Assembly: GCA_022072085.1 (NCBI GenBank) | Contig: JAJVII010000035.1 | Span: 1 to 64,000 of the forward strand | Length of the DNA stretch: 64,000 nucleotides | Source of the DNA: Phycisphaerae bacterium | GTDB taxonomy: Bacteria > Planctomycetota > Phycisphaerae > JAJVII01 | Reading direction: 5' to 3' | Part shown: positions 4,284 to 13,289 of the stretch, in pieces | Numbering within the stretch: the first letter of the stretch is position 1 | Layout: each line of letters starts with the position of its first letter | Translations under genes and position numbers: made by a program | Notes under the pieces: generated by a model | What the model saw: the letters and a program-made list of their open reading frames with translations, nothing else | The model's database searches: none | Told to the model about the DNA's origin: nothing

Positions 4284-4625
4284 CGACGGCGTCGACCTGA
4301 ACTCCCGCGAGGGCTGCACCAGCAAGAGGGGGTGGCAGCCGTCCGCTACATCAAGTCCCGCGCCAAGTCGCCCGTTGTCCTCAACCAGGACACCGCAGTT
4401 GAAGGCGAACCTCGCCGGCGCTTCGTCGGCAACCTGGCTGGCTCGCCCGGCCGTGTGGTGCTCTTGGCCAAACTCGGCAAGCTGCCGCAATGGCGGATCG
4501 TTCCCGACTGGACCGTCGGCGAGTTGGGTGGGTTCCACGTGATGCTTGACGACTGCGACGAAGCATGCGATGTACTAGCGCGCCTCGCAATGGACGTTCG
4601 GGTCTTGGCCGAAACTGGAGTTCGG
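4284..4625 (+). pseudogene. Decayed fragment of a HUH Rep gene
   Basis: This stretch matches the 3' half of the intact Rep gene at 8506-9675. The shared peptides are GVDLNSR at the start, then after a frameshift AAVRYIKS, then NQDT, GEPRRRFVGNLAGSPGRVVLL, KLGKLPQW and IVPD, and a shared GFHV segment. The N-terminal half with the Cys cluster and HUH motif is missing. About 190 bp between the tyrosine motif and the C-terminal domain is deleted compared with the intact copy. It is therefore a dead remnant of a related element. It is followed, as in the intact element, by a gene on the opposite strand and then a structured repeat. Confidence 0.8.
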
Positions 4626-4658
4626 CGGAGACATCGCGCCGAGTGCCGTCGGCGGCTT

Positions 4659-5030
4659 TCAATGCCAGTCGTTCCCGCACCAATAGCAATGGCGGGCCTT
4701 GGGCGTCCGGACAATGCGACTGCATTTCGGACACCGGTTGATGTTTGCCTCGGTCGGGTGTTCACGCAGAACTCGTTCACGCACCTTACGTCGGAATAGG
4801 TCAATGCCGTTGCGAAGCTCGGCGGCGATGAGCGGATCCTCGTCACGTCGGCTGAGCTTCGTTAGGGCCTTCTTCATGCCCTCGCTCTTGGCAACGGCAG
4901 CTTGCTCCAGAATCTGGGCCGCGCGACCTACCTCAAGCTCGTTTTTCGTCATTAAGTGCCAGCAGTGACACCAGACGTAGTGGGTGAGTTCGCAATCTTC
5001 GTCGTACGGCTTCTGATAGGGGAACCCCAT
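4659..5030 (-). CDS. Small protein with C-terminal zinc ribbon
   Basis: A 123-residue protein of unrecognised family. It has an N-terminal Cys/His-containing stretch (HYVWCHCWH), a helical, Lys/Glu-rich middle, and a C-terminal zinc-ribbon pair CPKC and CYWC separated by about 12 residues. Base composition is less GC-rich than the neighbours. It is convergent with the Rep remnant and followed, on the far side, by the structured repeat at 5121. This is the same position as the cargo genes of the intact element at 9617-10805. It is therefore probably cargo of a dead element; whether it is still expressed is unknown. Confidence 0.6.
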   Translation of the reverse strand: MGFPYQKPYDEDCELTHYVWCHCWHLMTKNELEVGRAAQILEQAAVAKSEGMKKALTKLSRRDEDPLIAAELRNGIDLFRRKVRERVLREHPTEANINRCPKCSRIVRTPKARHCYWCGNDWH

Positions 5031-5120
5031 TTGAAGTCTCCGGTCAGTTCATGGTAGTGCCAGGGCGGCTGTATGCAAGCGTTGTTGACAGGATGCGATT
5101 TCTGCATCCCCAATGGAGTT

Positions 5121-5247
5121 GCCCCGCCTGCGGAACGCAGGCGTTGGGGCAGTTCGTTGGGGCAAGATGTCTTTGTCCATGAGTGGTTGCCCCGGCAATC
5201 GGGGGGTGCAGAAGGGGCCATCTCTCATGGCACGCAAGACGGCGTGG
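5121..5247. repeat. Structured repeat copy A (two hairpins)
   Basis: The first part is a bulged hairpin: GCCCC, one unpaired base, CCTGCG, loop gaa, CGCAGG, four unpaired bases, GGGGC (5121-5150). About 24 bases later comes a block (5174-5214) almost identical to 10958-10999, containing the palindrome TTGCC-CC-GGCAA. A further shared segment, GACGGCGTGG, ends near 5247. The first hairpin keeps its shape but not its sequence in copy B, as expected if structure is selected. The rest of 5031-5412 shows no gene. Confidence 0.7.
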
Positions 5248-5412
5248 ACGTGGGCGGAATATCGGATGGCCCGGCGGCTCATGGCAGGGGGGCGGGGGCC
5301 TTCGCACGCCTGCGTAGAGCCCCGAGCCCGGGGCGGCTTGAGGGGCCGGGGCGGTGTGGATATGCTGGATGCGACTGCGGACGGGGGCGGGCAACACCGG
5401 GGAGGCCAAACC

Positions 5413-8203: not shown

Positions 8204-8241
8204 GGGCGAGTGGCGGAACGGCAGACGCAGGGGACTTAAAA
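8204..8241 (+). pseudogene. tRNA-Leu 5' fragment = left attachment repeat (attL)
   Basis: These 38 bases are identical to 13146-13183, the 5' half of the intact tRNA-Leu(UAA) gene. Identity starts exactly at the first tRNA base and stops in the anticodon loop; the 3' half is absent here. This is the footprint of site-specific integration. Confidence 0.9.
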
Positions 8242-8367
8242 ACGGTCCAGGCGTCATTGCGTGAAGTTGTGCCATCTCCCGCCGTGATGCGGAAACCCCC
8301 GTCAATCAAGGCGATTCCGCATGTCGCCCGCGAGTGATCGCGAGTGGTCCTTTCTCTCCGCGCGCCG

Positions 8368-8391
8368 TGCGCGCTACCCAATCTCTTCCCA
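8368..8391 (+). repeat. Putative integrase arm-type site, left
   Basis: A 24-base segment matching 13067-13090 at 23 of 24 positions, in the same orientation, inside the left end of the element. The rest of 8242-8505 contains no supported gene. Confidence 0.55.
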
Positions 8392-8505
8392 ATTCCAAGC
8401 GCGGGTTTCGCTGTCGATTCGGCGTCGAGTCGAGCGGGGCCTGTGCGCAGAGAAGCGCCCTGAACGGTCATCTTGGCGGGTGGCGTTCAGGGCGCGGGGA
8501 AGATC

Positions 8506-9675
8506 ATGCACGATCATACCGTTGCGTCTACACCTGTTCAAGCGGGCTTCCTGGGCGATTGGGCGGGCAGGCCGGGGGCCGGGGGCGGTTCATCCGCCCC
8601 GGCCCCGGCCTCCGCCCGGCCCGAAGGGCCGGGCAGTAGACTTGAAGTACAGGGCAATAAGGTTACCGGGGGCATTGAAGGTCGCGCCCTGGTGGTCCGT
8701 CGCCATCGGTGCGGCTGCCGAGTCTGCCCGACGTGCGGGCCGATCCTGGGTTCACGCGTGCGGGGCAATCTGCTCAGCCAGGGCGGCGAGTGGATCAGGC
8801 CGAAGTTGTTCACCCTGACAGTCGATCCCAAGCGATTCGATTCGCCACAAGCTGCGTGGCGGTACGTCACCAATGGAAAGTACCTCCCGCGTCTGTTGCG
8901 TGGCCTGGGCATCAAGCGGTGGGTGTGGGTCCTGGAGTTCCAGAGCCTGGAGCGCGGCGGCTGGCCTCACTGGCATGTCCTCATCGACGTTGGCCGGCTT
9001 CCTCGGGCCTATGTCGATCTCGACCGGGCATGGCGGCTGTGGCGGGATGAGTGGCATATCGGCGGCGTCGATCTGAACAGCCGCAAGCGCGAGGCCTGCA
9101 AAGGCGTCGTGGCCGCCATCCGCTACATCACGAAGTACCTCATCAAGTCACCCAAGGGCGGCTTTCCTGATTGGGTCCTCGCCCTGTCGCGTGTGCGTTT
9201 CATTCAGGGCAGCCAAGCCGTCGGAGCGTTGGTCAGCCGCCGGCGGGCGTCGTCCTCATCCGCCAGCCGGCCGGGCGACGAGAACGGCGAAGATCGAAAG
9301 CGGAAACGCGAGAAGGGCGAGCCGTCGCCCCTCGCCCAGCGTGTCAAGGGCTGCGGCAAGTCCTCCGTCGTCCTCGATCAGGACACCGGCTTCGATGGCG
9401 AACCTCGCCGGCGATTCGTCGGCAACCTAGCTGGCTCACCTGGGCGCGTGGTGCTGCTCTCCAAGCTCGGCAAGCTGCCGCAATGGACAATTGTTCCCGA
9501 TCATTCCGGCGGGGAAATGATCGGGTTTCATGTGGTGCTTGGTGATGGGGAAGATGCAAGAGACGTCTTGTCCCGCCTGCAGGCCAACGTGGAGGACGCA
9601 GCTGTACGCGAAATCCTCATAGGTCGAAATCGTCGAGGCGAAAACTGCAAAGCATGGTCGTATCAACAACCTTGA
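8506..9675 (+). CDS. HUH-type rolling-circle replication initiator (Rep)
   Basis: The protein has 389 residues from the ATG at 8506, which follows GGGGAAG; the first 50 residues are Gly/Ala/Pro-rich. A Cys cluster (C69, C71, C74, C77) precedes the HUH motif GWPHWHVLID (H155 and H157, metal ligands). The helix AAIRYITKYLIK (Y207, Y211) carries the likely nicking tyrosine and lysine. A low-complexity Ser/Arg/Lys linker then leads to a C-terminal domain, GEPRRRFVGNLAG. In the family the enzyme nicks one strand at a plasmid or phage origin and stays joined to the 5' end. It is most like the G2P/ORF2 rolling-circle group. The last 59 bp overlap the convergent cargo gene. Confidence 0.82.
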   Translation: MHDHTVASTPVQAGFLGDWAGRPGAGGGSSAPAPASARPEGPGSRLEVQGNKVTGGIEGRALVVRRHRCGCRVCPTCGPILGSRVRGNLLSQGGEWIRPKLFTLTVDPKRFDSPQAAWRYVTNGKYLPRLLRGLGIKRWVWVLEFQSLERGGWPHWHVLIDVGRLPRAYVDLDRAWRLWRDEWHIGGVDLNSRKREACKGVVAAIRYITKYLIKSPKGGFPDWVLALSRVRFIQGSQAVGALVSRRRASSSSASRPGDENGEDRKRKREKGEPSPLAQRVKGCGKSSVVLDQDTGFDGEPRRRFVGNLAGSPGRVVLLSKLGKLPQWTIVPDHSGGEMIGFHVVLGDGEDARDVLSRLQANVEDAAVREILIGRNRRGENCKAWSYQQP

Positions 9676-10324
9676 TTGTCCCGTTGTCGTCGGCCTCTAC
9701 GTTCCACGGCCAGACTCTGCACCTTGGGTCCTTTGGGTCATCAACCATAGAGACGAACCTTATCGTTTCGAACTCGCCGGGAATGCCAACGCACAAACGT
9801 CCCTGGTAGATACTGCCGGGTAGGTGTGTGCATGATCGCATGTCCTGCCCGCAAATTGAGCACCGGAGCTGTTTGCAGACGATTTCGGGACTGACGTAAG
9901 GTCCGTCCCCAAAGCTCTCCTTTATGTGGTTGATGACCGCGTCAATGCGTTCCAGACACCACTGGGGAAAAGCGTGTGTGCAACCTGCCATAGCGTAAGA
10001 GATTCTTTCCTTGGCATCCCAGAGGACTTGCCAAACCTCTTCAACAACTTTCGGACTTTGGATCCATCCCACACGAGCTGTGACGTGGGCGGCATGGACG
10101 CAATCTGCCAAGCCTCGGAACAGAATTCCCGCGATCAGGGCAATGGTGCGCAAGGCACCATCGCTGCCCATGTCTGATGCAAGCATAGTCGCGCAGTGCT
10201 TAACCGCAGTCTTGCACCTCATGTTTGCGGCGTCGAAATCCGCGTCATGAAAGTCTGTCTCGATTGCATCTAAGCAGTCCGAAGCCCAAGCCTGTATCTC
10301 GTCGTGCGGGGTATCACTTGTCAT
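9617..10324 (-). CDS. Element cargo protein with Cys/His cluster, function unknown
   Basis: A 235-residue soluble protein of no family I can name. Residues 1-140 are mostly helical. Residues 155-178 hold a compact metal-binding-like cluster: C155-x2-C158-x6-C165-x-H167, then Y173 and C178. The C-terminal 50 residues are acidic and beta-rich, with many hydrophobic residues (RCRVWPWNVE). Its start overlaps the stop of the preceding membrane-protein gene by 11 bp, so the two are translationally coupled. Base composition is clearly lower in GC than the chromosome. Its 3' end overlaps rep by 59 bp tail to tail. A defence, anti-defence or superinfection role is possible from context only. Confidence 0.7.
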   Translation of the reverse strand: MTSDTPHDEIQAWASDCLDAIETDFHDADFDAANMRCKTAVKHCATMLASDMGSDGALRTIALIAGILFRGLADCVHAAHVTARVGWIQSPKVVEEVWQVLWDAKERISYAMAGCTHAFPQWCLERIDAVINHIKESFGDGPYVSPEIVCKQLRCSICGQDMRSCTHLPGSIYQGRLCVGIPGEFETIRFVSMVDDPKDPRCRVWPWNVEADDNGTIKVVDTTMLCSFRLDDFDL

Positions 10325-10805
10325 CCGGGTTGTTCTCCGTTGCGGCCAGAAGACGAAGAAGTACCTCGGAATCGCCTTCGTACTTGATGGAACTGAACTC
10401 TCCGTCTTTCCGAAGGAGAATGTTGACTCGTACGGCTAGGGGCTTATCTGGCGGAGTATTTGAACCGCTGGACTTGCCGGTCTTGCGACCGAAGAGCTTT
10501 GTTGCCAGGATGTTGACGAGGAGAGGGACAATGACGGTATTCAATATCCAGATCGTTCCAAGCCAGATCAATGCACCGCGTCTCTCGAGGAACTTGGTTT
10601 CCAGCCCTAGGTCGAGTGAATTGGCGCATCGGATGTTCTCGGCCTTGACCAACTTGCTCAGGGTGATTGAGGAGTCTGAGTCGTAGAGTTGGTCGCCCTG
10701 CGCAGGGCCTTCGATGTTCTCGGGCAGGCAGAGCACGTCGAACTTAAGAATGTCCTCTTCGGCCACACCGAGACGGATCAATGGGGACAATTTGCTATCG
10801 ATCAT
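10314..10805 (-). CDS. Element cargo: single-pass membrane protein, function unknown
   Basis: A 163-residue protein. Residues 1-75 are soluble, with a short DSDSSITLSKLVKAENI stretch that reads like a small regulatory fold. One strong membrane segment follows (about residues 78-103, ALIWLGTIWILNTVIVPLLV), then basic residues, a Ser/Asn/Pro linker and a C-terminal mixed alpha/beta domain (VRVNILLRKDG to LLRLLAATEN). There is no signal peptide, so the membrane segment is internal. It is the first gene of a coupled pair with the Cys/His protein. Low GC compared with the chromosome supports arrival by transfer. I do not recognise the family. Confidence 0.7.
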   Translation of the reverse strand: MIDSKLSPLIRLGVAEEDILKFDVLCLPENIEGPAQGDQLYDSDSSITLSKLVKAENIRCANSLDLGLETKFLERRGALIWLGTIWILNTVIVPLLVNILATKLFGRKTGKSSGSNTPPDKPLAVRVNILLRKDGEFSSIKYEGDSEVLLRLLAATENNPDDK

Positions 10806-10904
10806 TGTTGGGGCTCCCTACTGGAATTCAGTGCGATTATCGCTCGCTGGCCAAGCCGAAGCAAGCATCCTCAATCGTCTTGCTTGGGCCTCCTTGTTGG
10901 AGCG

Positions 10905-11033
10905 AACCTGCCGCACCAGCGGCAACGGGTTCGGTCGATGCAGCCCGGCCCGATGGATGTCCATGAGTGATTGCCTCGGCAATCGGGGAGCAGCAGAAGC
11001 AAGCGGGACAGCGCAGCAGGCGAGACGGCGTGG
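10905..11033. repeat. Structured repeat copy B (two hairpins)
   Basis: A bulged hairpin (AACC, one base, GCCGC, loop acca, GCGGC, three bases, GGTT; 10905-10931) is followed by a block (10958-10999) nearly identical to copy A at 5174-5214. The block contains the palindrome GATTGCC-TC-GGCAATC. A GACGGCGTGG segment ends near 11033. It lies between the cargo operon and the helix-turn-helix gene, in a 377-bp stretch without other genes. It could be a replication origin, a transcriptional boundary or a dispersed genomic repeat. Confidence 0.7.
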
Positions 11034-11145
11034 GCAGGGGCCAAACGGGGACGGCCAGGGGGGCCGGCTTGGCCCCTGGGGACCCACGGCGTTTTGCCTG
11101 CCGCCGGGCTGCCGAAGAAAAGTGCATCCGTCGTCACCTTTTTAG

Positions 11146-11175
11146 TTGACGCGTCGTTCACTTCCTCGATAGGAT
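11146..11175 (+). promoter_or_regulatory. Putative promoter of the HTH-Xis-Int operon
   Basis: TTGACG, 18 bases, TAGGAT. The -10 ends only 7 bases before the ATG at 11183, so the transcript would be leaderless or nearly so. Confidence 0.4.
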
Positions 11176-11182
11176 TCCCGGC

Positions 11183-11668
11183 ATGGGCAAGAAAGACTTT
11201 GAATTCGTGGAGATTCCCGACCGCCTTCGGCCGCTCCTGGGCGAGGTCGATCCTGGCACGCGCCTTTTCCGGCGGTTCGGGAACGATGACGACTACCAGG
11301 AGTGGTGGGACGCGGTCTGCGAAATCTGCGGCGAGGAAAGCAGCCTCTCGCCCGGCGGCGTGTCCATGTATGCCGCCGTCTCGCGGGCCGGCGTTCACAA
11401 GCGGATGAAAGAGGGCCGCATCACGGCGTTCATGTTCCACGTCGTCAAGGGCCAGTCGCGATGGACGCGGCGGGAGCTACTGGAGAACAGCGTACCGTAC
11501 ATCTACATCCCGGGCATCGAAGTTCGCCGGTGGGCCGAGATTCTCGGCGCGATGAATCGCGCCGAGGCAAAGCGGGAGGCGTTCGGCGACGGCGATTTTG
11601 TGGGGCGTTTTCTTGAATCGCGGGGGCGGAAGCTCCCCAAGGGCAGCAAGAGCAAGGAGAAGAAGTGA
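11183..11668 (+). CDS. Helix-turn-helix protein of the integrative element
   Basis: A 161-residue protein. Residues 56-83, LSPGGVSMYAAVSRAGVHKR followed by MKEGRITA, have the form of a short winged or MerR/AlpA-like helix-turn-helix: a helix entry, a recognition helix with VSRAGVHKR, and the GRI turn. The C terminus is Lys/Arg-rich. Proteins with this motif commonly sit beside excisionase and integrase genes in planctomycete elements. The likely role is control of the element or help with Rep or Int. The stop overlaps the next start (TGATG), and the three genes 11183-13059 form an operon. Confidence 0.72.
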   Translation: MGKKDFEFVEIPDRLRPLLGEVDPGTRLFRRFGNDDDYQEWWDAVCEICGEESSLSPGGVSMYAAVSRAGVHKRMKEGRITAFMFHVVKGQSRWTRRELLENSVPYIYIPGIEVRRWAEILGAMNRAEAKREAFGDGDFVGRFLESRGRKLPKGSKSKEKK

Positions 11669-11919
11669 TGGCTACGAGCGTGGGCGAATCGTCTGGAGGC
11701 GATCGCCTGGGGGATTTCGGGCGGCTGCTGTCGGAGGCGGAAGTCATTTCGATTCTGTCTCTGGACCAGCGGAGGAACCCGAAGGGGGCGTTGCGTTGGC
11801 TGATACGAACGGGACGGCTCGCGGTTGTCAGGCTGGCCAAGGGGATAAACGGCTTCAGACGCGAGGACGTGGCTGCGTTCATCGAGTCTTGCCGTGTGCC
11901 GGCTACGGACCGGCGATAA
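11668..11919 (+). CDS. Excisionase-like small HTH protein
   Basis: An 83-residue protein beginning at the ATG that overlaps the preceding stop by one base; AAGGAG lies upstream. LLSEAEVISIL, GALRWLIRTGRLAVVRL, and GFRREDVAAFIES form the helix, turn, wing and closing helix of an AlpA/excisionase-type DNA-binding fold, which usually bends DNA at att sites and steers an integrase to excision. It lies 12 bp upstream of the integrase gene. Its role as Xis is inferred from fold and position. Confidence 0.72.
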   Translation: MATSVGESSGGDRLGDFGRLLSEAEVISILSLDQRRNPKGALRWLIRTGRLAVVRLAKGINGFRREDVAAFIESCRVPATDRR

Positions 11920-11931
11920 GGGGTATCTGGC

Positions 11932-13059
11932 ATGGCAATCAATCGCAACCCAACAGCGGTGTGGATGGTCCGGCGCCGGGGCAAGCGGGGGACAAGCTAC
12001 CAGCTTCGCTGGATCGACCCGCGAACCGGCCAGCAGCGGGCGGAAGCCTGTGGCCGGGACAGCGTGTATGCCAAGACGCGGCGGGCGCAGCTCAAAGAAG
12101 AAATCCGCGAAGGGCTGGCCGGCCGACTGCCCGAGTTGAGCCTGACGGACCTGGCTGGGGCCAAGGGACAACCCGGCAAGCTCGACGCGATGATGGCTGG
12201 TCGAAGCGTGGCCACGGTCAGCAAGACCAAGGACACCCTGCGGCTGTTCAAGGCGCTGTGCGACATCGACAGCGTGGCGGCCATCGACCGACGGGCCGTG
12301 ATGGACTTCAAGGCGAAGCGGCTGGCTGGCGGGGTCCGCCCTGCGACGGTGAACAAGGACCTGCGGCAACTCCGGGCCGTGTTGTCCTACGCGATGGACG
12401 CCGGCTATCTGCGGACCAATCCCCTGCTGCGGTGGCGGGGCCTGATGCTCAAGGAACCCGAGAAGCAAGTCCGCGTCGTCGAGGCCGACGAGTTCGCCAA
12501 GCTGCTCAAGGCGTCGGAGAACCCGGCCTACCGCGCCCTGCTCGTCGTGGGCTACTACCAGGGCCTCCGCAGGACGGAGCTGGTGAACCTGCGATGGTCG
12601 GCCGTCGATCTGGTCAACCTGGTGCTCCACGTGGTCAACGTGGCCGACGCCGGCGAGTTCACCAAGAGCCGCAAGAATCGGTCGCTGCCGATGGACCCGG
12701 CCGTCGTGTCGGTCCTCAGCCAGTTGTGGAAGGACACGCCAAAGCGGGTCGAGGGTGGGACAGCTACGCCGGTCAGTCCCCACGTGTTCACCTGGCCGAC
12801 CGGCGAGCCGTTCAAGAGTGATTGGGCGACGCGGGAGTTTGAGCGTGTCGTGAAGCTGGCGGGCGTGGCCAAGTGCTCGCTGCACGATCTGCGGCGGTCG
12901 TTCAGCACGATTGCCCAGCGGGCCGGCGTTGATAGGTCCGTGGTCAAGGACCTGGGCGGCTGGTCAACGGTGGCCGTGGTCGAGAAGCACTATACCGGCA
13001 ACGTCTCGCCGGCGTATCGGGCGGCGATGGAACGCATCGCTGCCAGTCGGACAGCCTGA
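11932..13059 (+). CDS. int: Tyrosine recombinase / integrase
   Basis: A 375-residue site-specific recombinase. The N-terminal region (GKRGTSYQLRWIDPRTG) resembles an arm-binding domain, and residues about 90-165 a SAM-like core-binding domain. The catalytic domain shows the first Arg in GLRRTELVNLRW (near 212), the Lys in SRKNRSLPM, HDLRRSF with the His and second Arg (near 317), GGW in place of the usual His, and the nucleophile Tyr in KHYTG (near 354). It lies 86 bp from the intact tRNA-Leu, the usual place for an integrase beside its att site. All catalytic residues are present, so it is probably active. Confidence 0.93.
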   Translation: MAINRNPTAVWMVRRRGKRGTSYQLRWIDPRTGQQRAEACGRDSVYAKTRRAQLKEEIREGLAGRLPELSLTDLAGAKGQPGKLDAMMAGRSVATVSKTKDTLRLFKALCDIDSVAAIDRRAVMDFKAKRLAGGVRPATVNKDLRQLRAVLSYAMDAGYLRTNPLLRWRGLMLKEPEKQVRVVEADEFAKLLKASENPAYRALLVVGYYQGLRRTELVNLRWSAVDLVNLVLHVVNVADAGEFTKSRKNRSLPMDPAVVSVLSQLWKDTPKRVEGGTATPVSPHVFTWPTGEPFKSDWATREFERVVKLAGVAKCSLHDLRRSFSTIAQRAGVDRSVVKDLGGWSTVAVVEKHYTGNVSPAYRAAMERIAASRTA

Positions 13060-13066
13060 TATGGGC

Positions 13067-13090
13067 TGCGCGCTACCCGATCTCTTCCCA
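13067..13090 (+). repeat. Putative integrase arm-type site, right
   Basis: Matches 8368-8391 at 23 of 24 bases in direct orientation. It lies between the integrase stop and the tRNA-Leu gene. Confidence 0.55.
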
Positions 13091-13106
13091 AGCGGGAGTG
13101 ACGGGC

Positions 13107-13135
13107 TTGCGACGATCTTTGTAAGATACTACAAG
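13107..13135 (+). promoter_or_regulatory. Putative element-borne promoter of tRNA-Leu
   Basis: TTGCGA, 17 bases, TACAAG, ending 10 bases before the tRNA. It lies inside the element, so it would replace the chromosomal promoter cut off by integration. Confidence 0.35.
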
Positions 13136-13145
13136 GGAAGAGTTT

Positions 13146-13231
13146 GGGCGAGTGGCGGAACGGCAGACGCAGGGGACTTAAAATCCCCTGGCCCCTCTGG
13201 GGCCGTGTGGGTTCGAATCCCACCTCGCCCA
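13146..13231 (+). tRNA. tRNA-Leu (anticodon UAA)
   Basis: An 86-base class II tRNA. The seven-pair acceptor stem GGGCGAG/CTCGCCC is perfect, with discriminator A. The anticodon stem GGGGA/TCCCC encloses the loop CTTAAAA, anticodon TAA. A long variable arm (GGCCCCTCTGGGGCC) and the T arm with GTTCGAATC are present. No CCA is encoded. Its first 38 bases repeat at 8204-8241, so the 5' half was supplied by the integrated element and the 3' half is chromosomal. Confidence 0.97.
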
Positions 13232-13289
13232 TGTGACTCGTGATGGCCGGTGTTGGCAGGTCGTGCTAATCGCCTTTGTCTCCAAGGAC

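What the first reader, a model, noticed from the sequence alone, without database searches (positions are those of the whole stretch)
8204..13183. Compact Rep-plus-integrase element inserted in tRNA-Leu
Seen: 38-bp direct repeats of the tRNA-Leu 5' half 4,942 bp apart, an intact HUH Rep, two opposite-strand cargo genes, two small HTH genes and an intact tyrosine integrase next to the whole tRNA. Known: actinomycete integrative elements use a Rep-Xis-Int core and tRNA sites. Inferred: this is a minimal planctomycete counterpart, possibly needing a helper for transfer. All key frames are open, so it may be active.
Basis: partly seen in the sequence, partly recalled or inferred. Interest (0 to 1): 0.8.

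Follow-up and report, generated by a model that had tools for sequence, protein, structure and literature searches.

The report
Small tRNA-integrated replicon carrying defence-like cargo
A 4.9-kb mobile element sits in a leucine tRNA gene of a planctomycete; it belongs to a little-known family of replicase-plus-integrase elements that often carry anti-phage genes, and its own cargo is an undescribed gene pair also found on archaeal virus and bacterial plasmid DNA, with a domain shared with phage capsid-building proteases.

Summary
An exact 38-bp repeat (8204-8241, 13146-13183), spanning tRNA-Leu(UAA) nt 1 to the end of the anticodon loop, brackets a 4,942-bp element. It holds an intact two-tyrosine HUH Rep, an opposite-strand gene pair, two small regulator-like genes and an intact tyrosine integrase. 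The element replaces the tRNA's 5' half, which is rare in bacteria.

Rep homologues occur in 21 of 298 class genomes, window included. At 10 homologous loci the Rep is likewise bracketed by direct repeats of a tRNA fragment (Pro, SeC, Met, Ser, Thr). A cargo slot, usually beside Rep, holds defence genes in five of them: CRISPR-Cas9, type III R-M-like, a DISARM-type helicase fragment, a caspase-domain gene. A related Rep lies on an inovirus contig. The element has no Tra/FtsK, relaxase or capsid gene, so it is not an AICE or an inovirus. Transfer probably needs a helper.

The window's cargo is a conserved, unnamed pair (B-A), also on a haloarchaeal pleolipovirus, a haloarchaeal plasmid and >200 bacterial plasmids. 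A carries a zinc-hairpin domain homologous to phage head-maturation proteases (hhalign 99%). It is a candidate antiviral module. Mobility and function are inferred, not shown.

The parts
8204..8241 (+). attL: orphan 5' half of tRNA-Leu (38-bp direct repeat)
   Evidence: the repeat finder; only other exact copy in the genome
8368..8392 (+). 25-bp internal direct repeat, left copy (possible integrase arm site or Rep-binding site)
   Evidence: 0 expected by chance in shuffles
8473..9675 (+). Rep, two-Tyr HUH replication initiator (probable start ATG 8506)
   Evidence: PF23343; invariant C80 C85 C88 H166 H168 D172 Y218 Y222 in alignment A1
9617..10324 (-). Cargo gene A (235 aa): helical N-terminus plus zinc-hairpin domain related to phage head-maturation proteases
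10314..10805 (-). Cargo gene B (163 aa): one strongly hydrophobic segment, conserved C-terminal strand domain; overlaps A by 11 bp, B upstream
10969..10984 (.). GATTGCC-TC-GGCAATC hairpin in an intergenic stretch conserved with the decayed copy (candidate origin or regulatory site)
   Evidence: function inferred only
11183..11668 (+). 161-aa element-specific gene, conserved near Rep in other elements (regulator-like, inferred)
11665..11919 (+). 84-aa Xis-like HTH_17 gene (weak match)
11932..13059 (+). Tyrosine integrase, single copy in this genome
   Evidence: PF00589
13067..13091 (+). 25-bp internal direct repeat, right copy
13146..13183 (+). attR: 38-bp repeat = 5' half of the restored tRNA gene
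13146..13232 (+). Whole tRNA-Leu(UAA); 5' half supplied by the element, 3' half chromosomal
   Evidence: ARAGORN (reported as 13145-13232)
4284..5255 (+). Decayed related element: Rep fragment with internal deletion, a different opposite-strand cargo ORF (4659-5030) and the same intergenic stretch; no Int or att

Best explanation
The block is an integrated, probably excisable replicon. The tyrosine integrase crosses over in the anticodon loop of tRNA-Leu(UAA), between attP on a circle and the tRNA gene, and the element supplies a replacement 5' half (with its own upstream sequence as promoter). On excision, with the small HTH gene as likely Xis, Rep nicks a double-strand origin and replicates the circle by rolling circle, giving ssDNA. 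Having no transfer or capsid genes, it would move by borrowing a helper (conjugative apparatus, or a filamentous or other phage). It persists partly because its cargo slot carries genes useful to the host, often anti-phage systems. The cargo here, pair B-A, is most likely such a module: A has a domain taken from, or shared with, phage head-maturation proteases and B has a likely membrane segment, so a capsid-assembly sensor or interferer (A) acting through a membrane effector (B) is my working model. Shown: anatomy, repeat, tRNA restoration, homologous elements with tRNA-fragment repeats, cargo exchange, B-A conservation, A-domain homology. Inferred: excision, replication, helper transfer, defence function, A-B mechanism.
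For: 38-bp repeat equal to the tRNA 5' half. Rep catalytic residues conserved. Int intact. Rep homologues in 21 of 298 class genomes, window included; seven of those loci and three further loci have the Rep bracketed by direct repeats of a tRNA fragment at Pro, SeC, Met, Ser and Thr genes. Tyrosine integrases in most; serine recombinase at tRNA-Pro in L023. Cargo in these elements: Cas9 and Cas1 with a 13-repeat array, DNA methylase, DrmD-like SNF2 fragment, caspase-domain gene. A related Rep sits on an inovirus contig with Zot and a weak secretin match. The B-A pair is on a pleolipovirus, haloarchaeal and rhizobial plasmids, gammaproteobacterial replicons and in three other Phycisphaerae; A homologues are on 212 plasmids and the enterobacterial form is in 24 of 5,426 E. 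coli genomes. Four B-A contexts have PADLOC matches nearby: PDC-S15/AbiJ, RT/DRT, PDC-M68B, PDC-S35. A-domain versus viral proteins between portal and capsid genes: hhalign 99.0%, E 2.8e-18; phrog_16951 hit by all six A proteins scanned; the viral protein's best structural match is HCMV capsid protease.
Against: No circular form, reads or transfer data. No close relative with an empty site: only one other genome of the family was held and it lacks the flanking gene. No background rate of defence genes in comparable islands was measured, and six of the eleven bracketed elements, the window included, carry cargo of unknown function. B and A have no PADLOC match and no Pfam match except a SEC-C tail in some A homologues. 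Not every B homologue has a convincing hydrophobic segment. A's AlphaFold model is weak outside the zinc hairpin (mean pLDDT 62.6), and its structure search gave no significant match.
Confidence: 0.68

Rival explanations
1. A streamlined or decayed filamentous phage (inovirus) prophage: a Pf-like provirus that kept Rep, Xis and Int and lost its coat and export genes, so it is a dead end.
For: A related Rep is on a Zot-bearing inovirus contig. Pf phages also use tyrosine integrases at tRNA-Gly, -Met and -SeC and carry accessory genes (PMC7549136).
Against: The same architecture without recognised capsid genes recurs in at least ten other loci with open Rep and Int frames, as expected of a maintained family rather than repeated decay. 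No structural gene or remnant was recognised in the window element.
Confidence: 0.15
2. A helper-dependent satellite of filamentous or other phages, packaged as ssDNA or dsDNA by a helper; the cargo mainly interferes with competing phages. (This is one specific form of the helper step in the best explanation, not exclusive of it.)
For: Inovirus-type Rep, no transfer genes, defence cargo, and an A domain shared with capsid-maturation proteases. Islands at tmRNA without transfer genes but with defence cargo are carried by a jumbo phage in Pseudomonas (PMC12595487).
Against: No packaging signal or helper identified; no planctomycete helper inovirus shown (the host of L059 is unknown).
Confidence: 0.3
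3. The B-A pair is not defence but plasmid or virus maintenance (toxin-antitoxin, exclusion or stress function).
For: Two short overlapping genes on mobile replicons; one small hydrophobic protein, typical of many toxin-antitoxin pairs.
Against: A is 235-330 aa with a zinc hairpin homologous to a head protease, unusual for an antitoxin; several defence-candidate neighbours.
Confidence: 0.3

Closest known systems
Actinomycete integrative and conjugative elements (AICEs, e.g. pSAM2)
   Same: Rep + Xis + Int core, tRNA site, rolling-circle-type Rep, similar gene order
   Different: No FtsK/SpoIIIE Tra protein; Rep is ORF2/G2P-type, not shown to be RepSA; planctomycete host; defence-rich cargo slot; 5'-half tRNA replacement (AICE features from PMC3218068)
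Pf-type filamentous phages (Inoviridae)
   Same: Tyrosine integrase at tRNA genes, Xis, accessory cargo; Rep family shared with a Zot-bearing inovirus contig
   Different: No coat, Zot or secretin gene; smaller; the Pf replication initiation protein differs (PMC7549136)
I55-type tmRNA islands and other defence-carrying islands
   Same: Integrase plus defence cargo at a tRNA or tmRNA gene, no autonomous transfer genes (PMC12595487)
   Different: This family encodes its own replication initiator and is far smaller
pTN3-type integrases (archaea)
   Same: attB is the 5' half of a tRNA gene, so the restored gene uses a promoter brought by the element (PMC8371274)
   Different: The integrase gene here is not split by integration; bacterial element

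Membership tests
Integrative element at a tRNA gene (generic) | Direct repeat of a tRNA segment at both ends with the tRNA restored at one end | tested here: met
   38-bp repeat, whole tRNA-Leu at right end
Integrative element at a tRNA gene (generic) | Site-specific recombinase inside the bracket | tested here: met
   PF00589 E 3e-23
Integrative element at a tRNA gene (generic) | Empty site in a close relative | tested here: inconclusive
   Only one other genome of the family held; it lacks the flank gene
HUH Rep (REP_ORF2-G2P) | HUH motif and catalytic tyrosine(s) in a family-level match | tested here: met
   PF23343 28.4 bits vs cut-off 27.8; H166-x-H168, Y218, Y222 invariant in 14 homologues
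AICE | Int + Rep at a tRNA gene | tested here: met
AICE | FtsK/SpoIIIE-type Tra protein | tested here: not met
   No such match in any element ORF scanned
Inoviridae | Zot/pI morphogenesis ATPase and small coat protein | tested here: not met
   No match in the element; Zot present on the related contig L059
Known anti-phage defence system (cargo B-A) | Match to a described system | tested here: not met
   No PADLOC match at E 0.1
Known anti-phage defence system (cargo B-A) | Measured protection from phage | not testable with these tools
   Needs experiment
Phage head-maturation protease (A domain) | Conserved Ser strand plus CSICG...CxH zinc hairpin | tested here: met
   hhalign 99.0%, E 2.8e-18 over 82 columns; S145 and Zn ligands invariant
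Phage head-maturation protease (A domain) | The invariant His of the viral family (H76 of L098; catalytic role inferred from the protease fold) | tested here: not met
   Invariant in the viral set; no invariant counterpart in the A family

The most novel reading that the evidence does not exclude
B-A is an undescribed antiviral system spread across Archaea and several bacterial phyla, in which A uses a captured capsid-maturation-protease domain to sense or block virus head assembly and B acts at the membrane; it is ferried by a planctomycete family of ssDNA-phage-like Rep-Int elements whose cargo slot exchanges whole immune systems, including CRISPR-Cas9.
Probability: 0.27. Interest if true: 0.88.

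Novelty: new variant of a known kind. Interest (0 to 1): 0.63.

Why it matters
It points to a family of very small (about 4-10 kb) self-replicating integrative elements in Planctomycetota and a Lentisphaeria genome that act as vehicles for immune systems, which I did not find described in the papers searched, and supplies a testable, widely distributed candidate immune module whose protein A may link host defence to viral head assembly.

Tried and rejected
AICE membership (no Tra). Inovirus membership (no coat or Zot). Rep in named phages or plasmids: none by tblastn. Empty-site test in the same family: only two genomes. Phylum search with the Rep profile failed twice at n=400 and was rerun at n=200. 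Viral-contig searches with single A proteins found nothing and the full A alignment was too diverse to search with. Alignment of A's N-terminus with the viral H76 region was rejected as forced, since that residue is not conserved in the A family. Structure search of A's model gave no significant match, the model being weak. Literature searches found no description of the family or of B-A. Rep and Int trees disagree in places, but long branches make module swapping only suggestive. The idea that the two 5'-half users (window and L057) share an integrase subfamily is unsupported (nearest to each other at 27% identity, no branch support).

Full report
OBSERVATION. The 38-bp direct repeats are exact and 4,942 bp apart; shuffled sequence of the same length gives at most 15 bp. 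The right copy is nt 1-38 of an intact tRNA-Leu(UAA), ending with the last base of the anticodon loop (sequence read). The left copy is an orphan; the rest of the genome holds only one weaker match to this tRNA region. So the element has replaced the 5' half of the gene, and the tRNA should now be transcribed from element DNA. Review literature says that bacterial tRNA genes hit by integrases keep their original promoter with very few exceptions (PMC8371274). A second 5'-half case appeared here, L057, a Planctomycetaceae contig with a 38-bp repeat of tRNA-Ser(GGA), 4,328 bp apart.

ANATOMY. Left to right: attL, Rep (+), genes A and B (-), ORF161 (+), Xis-like (+), Int (+), attR/tRNA. Rep passes Pfam's cut-off for REP_ORF2-G2P and keeps every invariant residue of a 14-member alignment, among them C80, C85, C88, H166-x-H168, D172, Y218 and Y222, with K225 nearly invariant, i.e. 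a two-tyrosine HUH initiator. The cargo pair is 54% GC against 64-70% around it, as expected of an exchanged insert. A 25-bp repeat lies near each end (8368-8392, 13067-13091, none expected by chance) and would flank the att site in the circle. A decayed relative lies about 3 kb upstream (about 4284-5255): a Rep fragment, a different opposite-strand cargo gene and the same intergenic stretch with its small hairpin. This shows an older relative with other cargo in the same neighbourhood.

FAMILY. Rep homologues occur in 21 of 298 genomes of the class, the window's included, and in few of the other classes sampled. Wider flanks and named contigs show direct repeats of a tRNA fragment bracketing Rep at tRNA-Pro (L023, L027), SeC (L031), Met (L032, L035, L039, L056), Ser (L038, L057) and Thr (L053). 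Most have a tyrosine integrase; L023 has a serine recombinase beside the tRNA (by inspection). Small RHH or HTH-like genes recur, and the 161-aa gene recurs near Rep in L025 and L056.

CARGO SLOT. The cargo, often on the opposite strand, usually lies between Rep and Int. L031 holds Cas9 and Cas1 (Pfam), a Cas2-like ORF (by inspection) and a 13-repeat array within a 10-kb element in tRNA-SeC. L039 has a DNA methylase beside a large helicase-like ORF, and L032 looks similar by inspection. L035 has a DrmD-like SNF2 fragment. L023 has a caspase-domain gene with a hydrophobic partner. L027, L038, L053, L056 and L057 carry genes without a family. I did not measure a background rate, so 'defence-rich' is suggestive.

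REP AFFINITY. One IMG/VR contig (L059) encodes a related Rep (REP_ORF2-G2P E 3e-9) together with Zot (PF05707 E 3e-6) and a weak secretin match, i.e. an inovirus. Pf filamentous phages likewise use tyrosine integrases at tRNA genes (PMC7549136). No coat, Zot, relaxase, FtsK or T4SS gene was recognised in the window element. It works like a replicating integrative element that depends on a helper; it is neither an AICE (PMC3218068) nor an inovirus by the tested features. tmRNA islands without transfer genes but with defence cargo, moved by a jumbo phage, are a known precedent for helper transfer (PMC12595487).

THE PAIR B-A. Searching with A led to a conserved overlapping or abutting pair with B upstream in a Haloterrigena plasmid, a Rhizobium plasmid, the Halorubrum pleolipovirus Humcor2 (there, too, on the opposite strand and next to the Rep gene), Acinetobacter, Pseudoalteromonas and three other Phycisphaerae (alignments). 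A homologues are on 212 plasmids, mostly conjugative Enterobacteriaceae plasmids, and the enterobacterial pair is in 24 of 5,426 E. coli genomes. Nearby genes include an FRG-domain gene (PDC-S15), AbiJ, a reverse transcriptase, a PDC-M68B gene and a PDC-S35-like gene. Neither B nor the A core has a Pfam or PADLOC match; some A homologues end in a SEC-C motif.

A's CSICG...CxH...YxG...C hairpin is shared with viral proteins encoded between portal and major capsid genes. All six A proteins scanned hit phrog_16951, and two of the viral proteins also hit a 'head maturation protease' family. Profile comparison: 99.0%, E 2.8e-18 over 82 columns. The viral protein's model (pLDDT 81.7) has the human cytomegalovirus capsid protease as its top solved match (prob 0.99 but E 0.013). 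A keeps the invariant Ser (S145) and the zinc ligands but has no conserved counterpart of the viral invariant His, so it is probably not an active protease. B's hydrophobic segment is strong in the window copy and several others, and weak in the two haloarchaeal, the rhizobial and one planctomycete homologue. My model, a head-protease-like sensor or decoy with a membrane effector, is inference.

NOVELTY. Rep-Int elements at tRNA genes and defence-carrying islands are each known. The combination (very small, inovirus-type Rep, swappable immune cargo, 5'-half integration) and the B-A module were not found in the literature searched, which covers only open-licence papers. Phage and plasmid collections hold no relative of this Rep detectable by tblastn.

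Noticed in passing
window 4284-5255: Decayed second Rep element with a different cargo ORF and the same intergenic hairpin stretch, no integrase or att repeat.
   Followed up: partly
L031 7892-17995: A 10-kb Rep-Int element in tRNA-SeC of a Phycisphaerae genome carrying Cas9, Cas1, a Cas2-like ORF and a 13-repeat array: a compact, apparently mobile CRISPR-Cas9.
   Followed up: partly
L059: IMG/VR inovirus contig (Zot, secretin-like gene, duplicated small coat-like ORFs) with a related Rep; no relative of its Rep in the phage collection.
   Followed up: partly
L083 3864-8864: Enterobacterial plasmids carry ISLad2, a hypothetical gene, an FRG-domain gene (PDC-S15) and the B-A pair together; the pair is also on some E. 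coli chromosomes.
   Followed up: partly
L087-L102, L085: Viral proteins, mostly between portal and capsid genes, carry a CSICG zinc hairpin next to the invariant Ser strand: an uncharacterised head-protease variety (phrog_16951).
   Followed up: partly
window 8368-8392 and 13067-13091: 25-bp direct repeats just inside both ends of the element, function unknown.
   Followed up: partly
L025 3690-7850: Cas1-like gene and a long CRISPR-like repeat array beside a Rep and a homologue of the window's 161-aa gene; no integrase or tRNA seen nearby.
   Followed up: no
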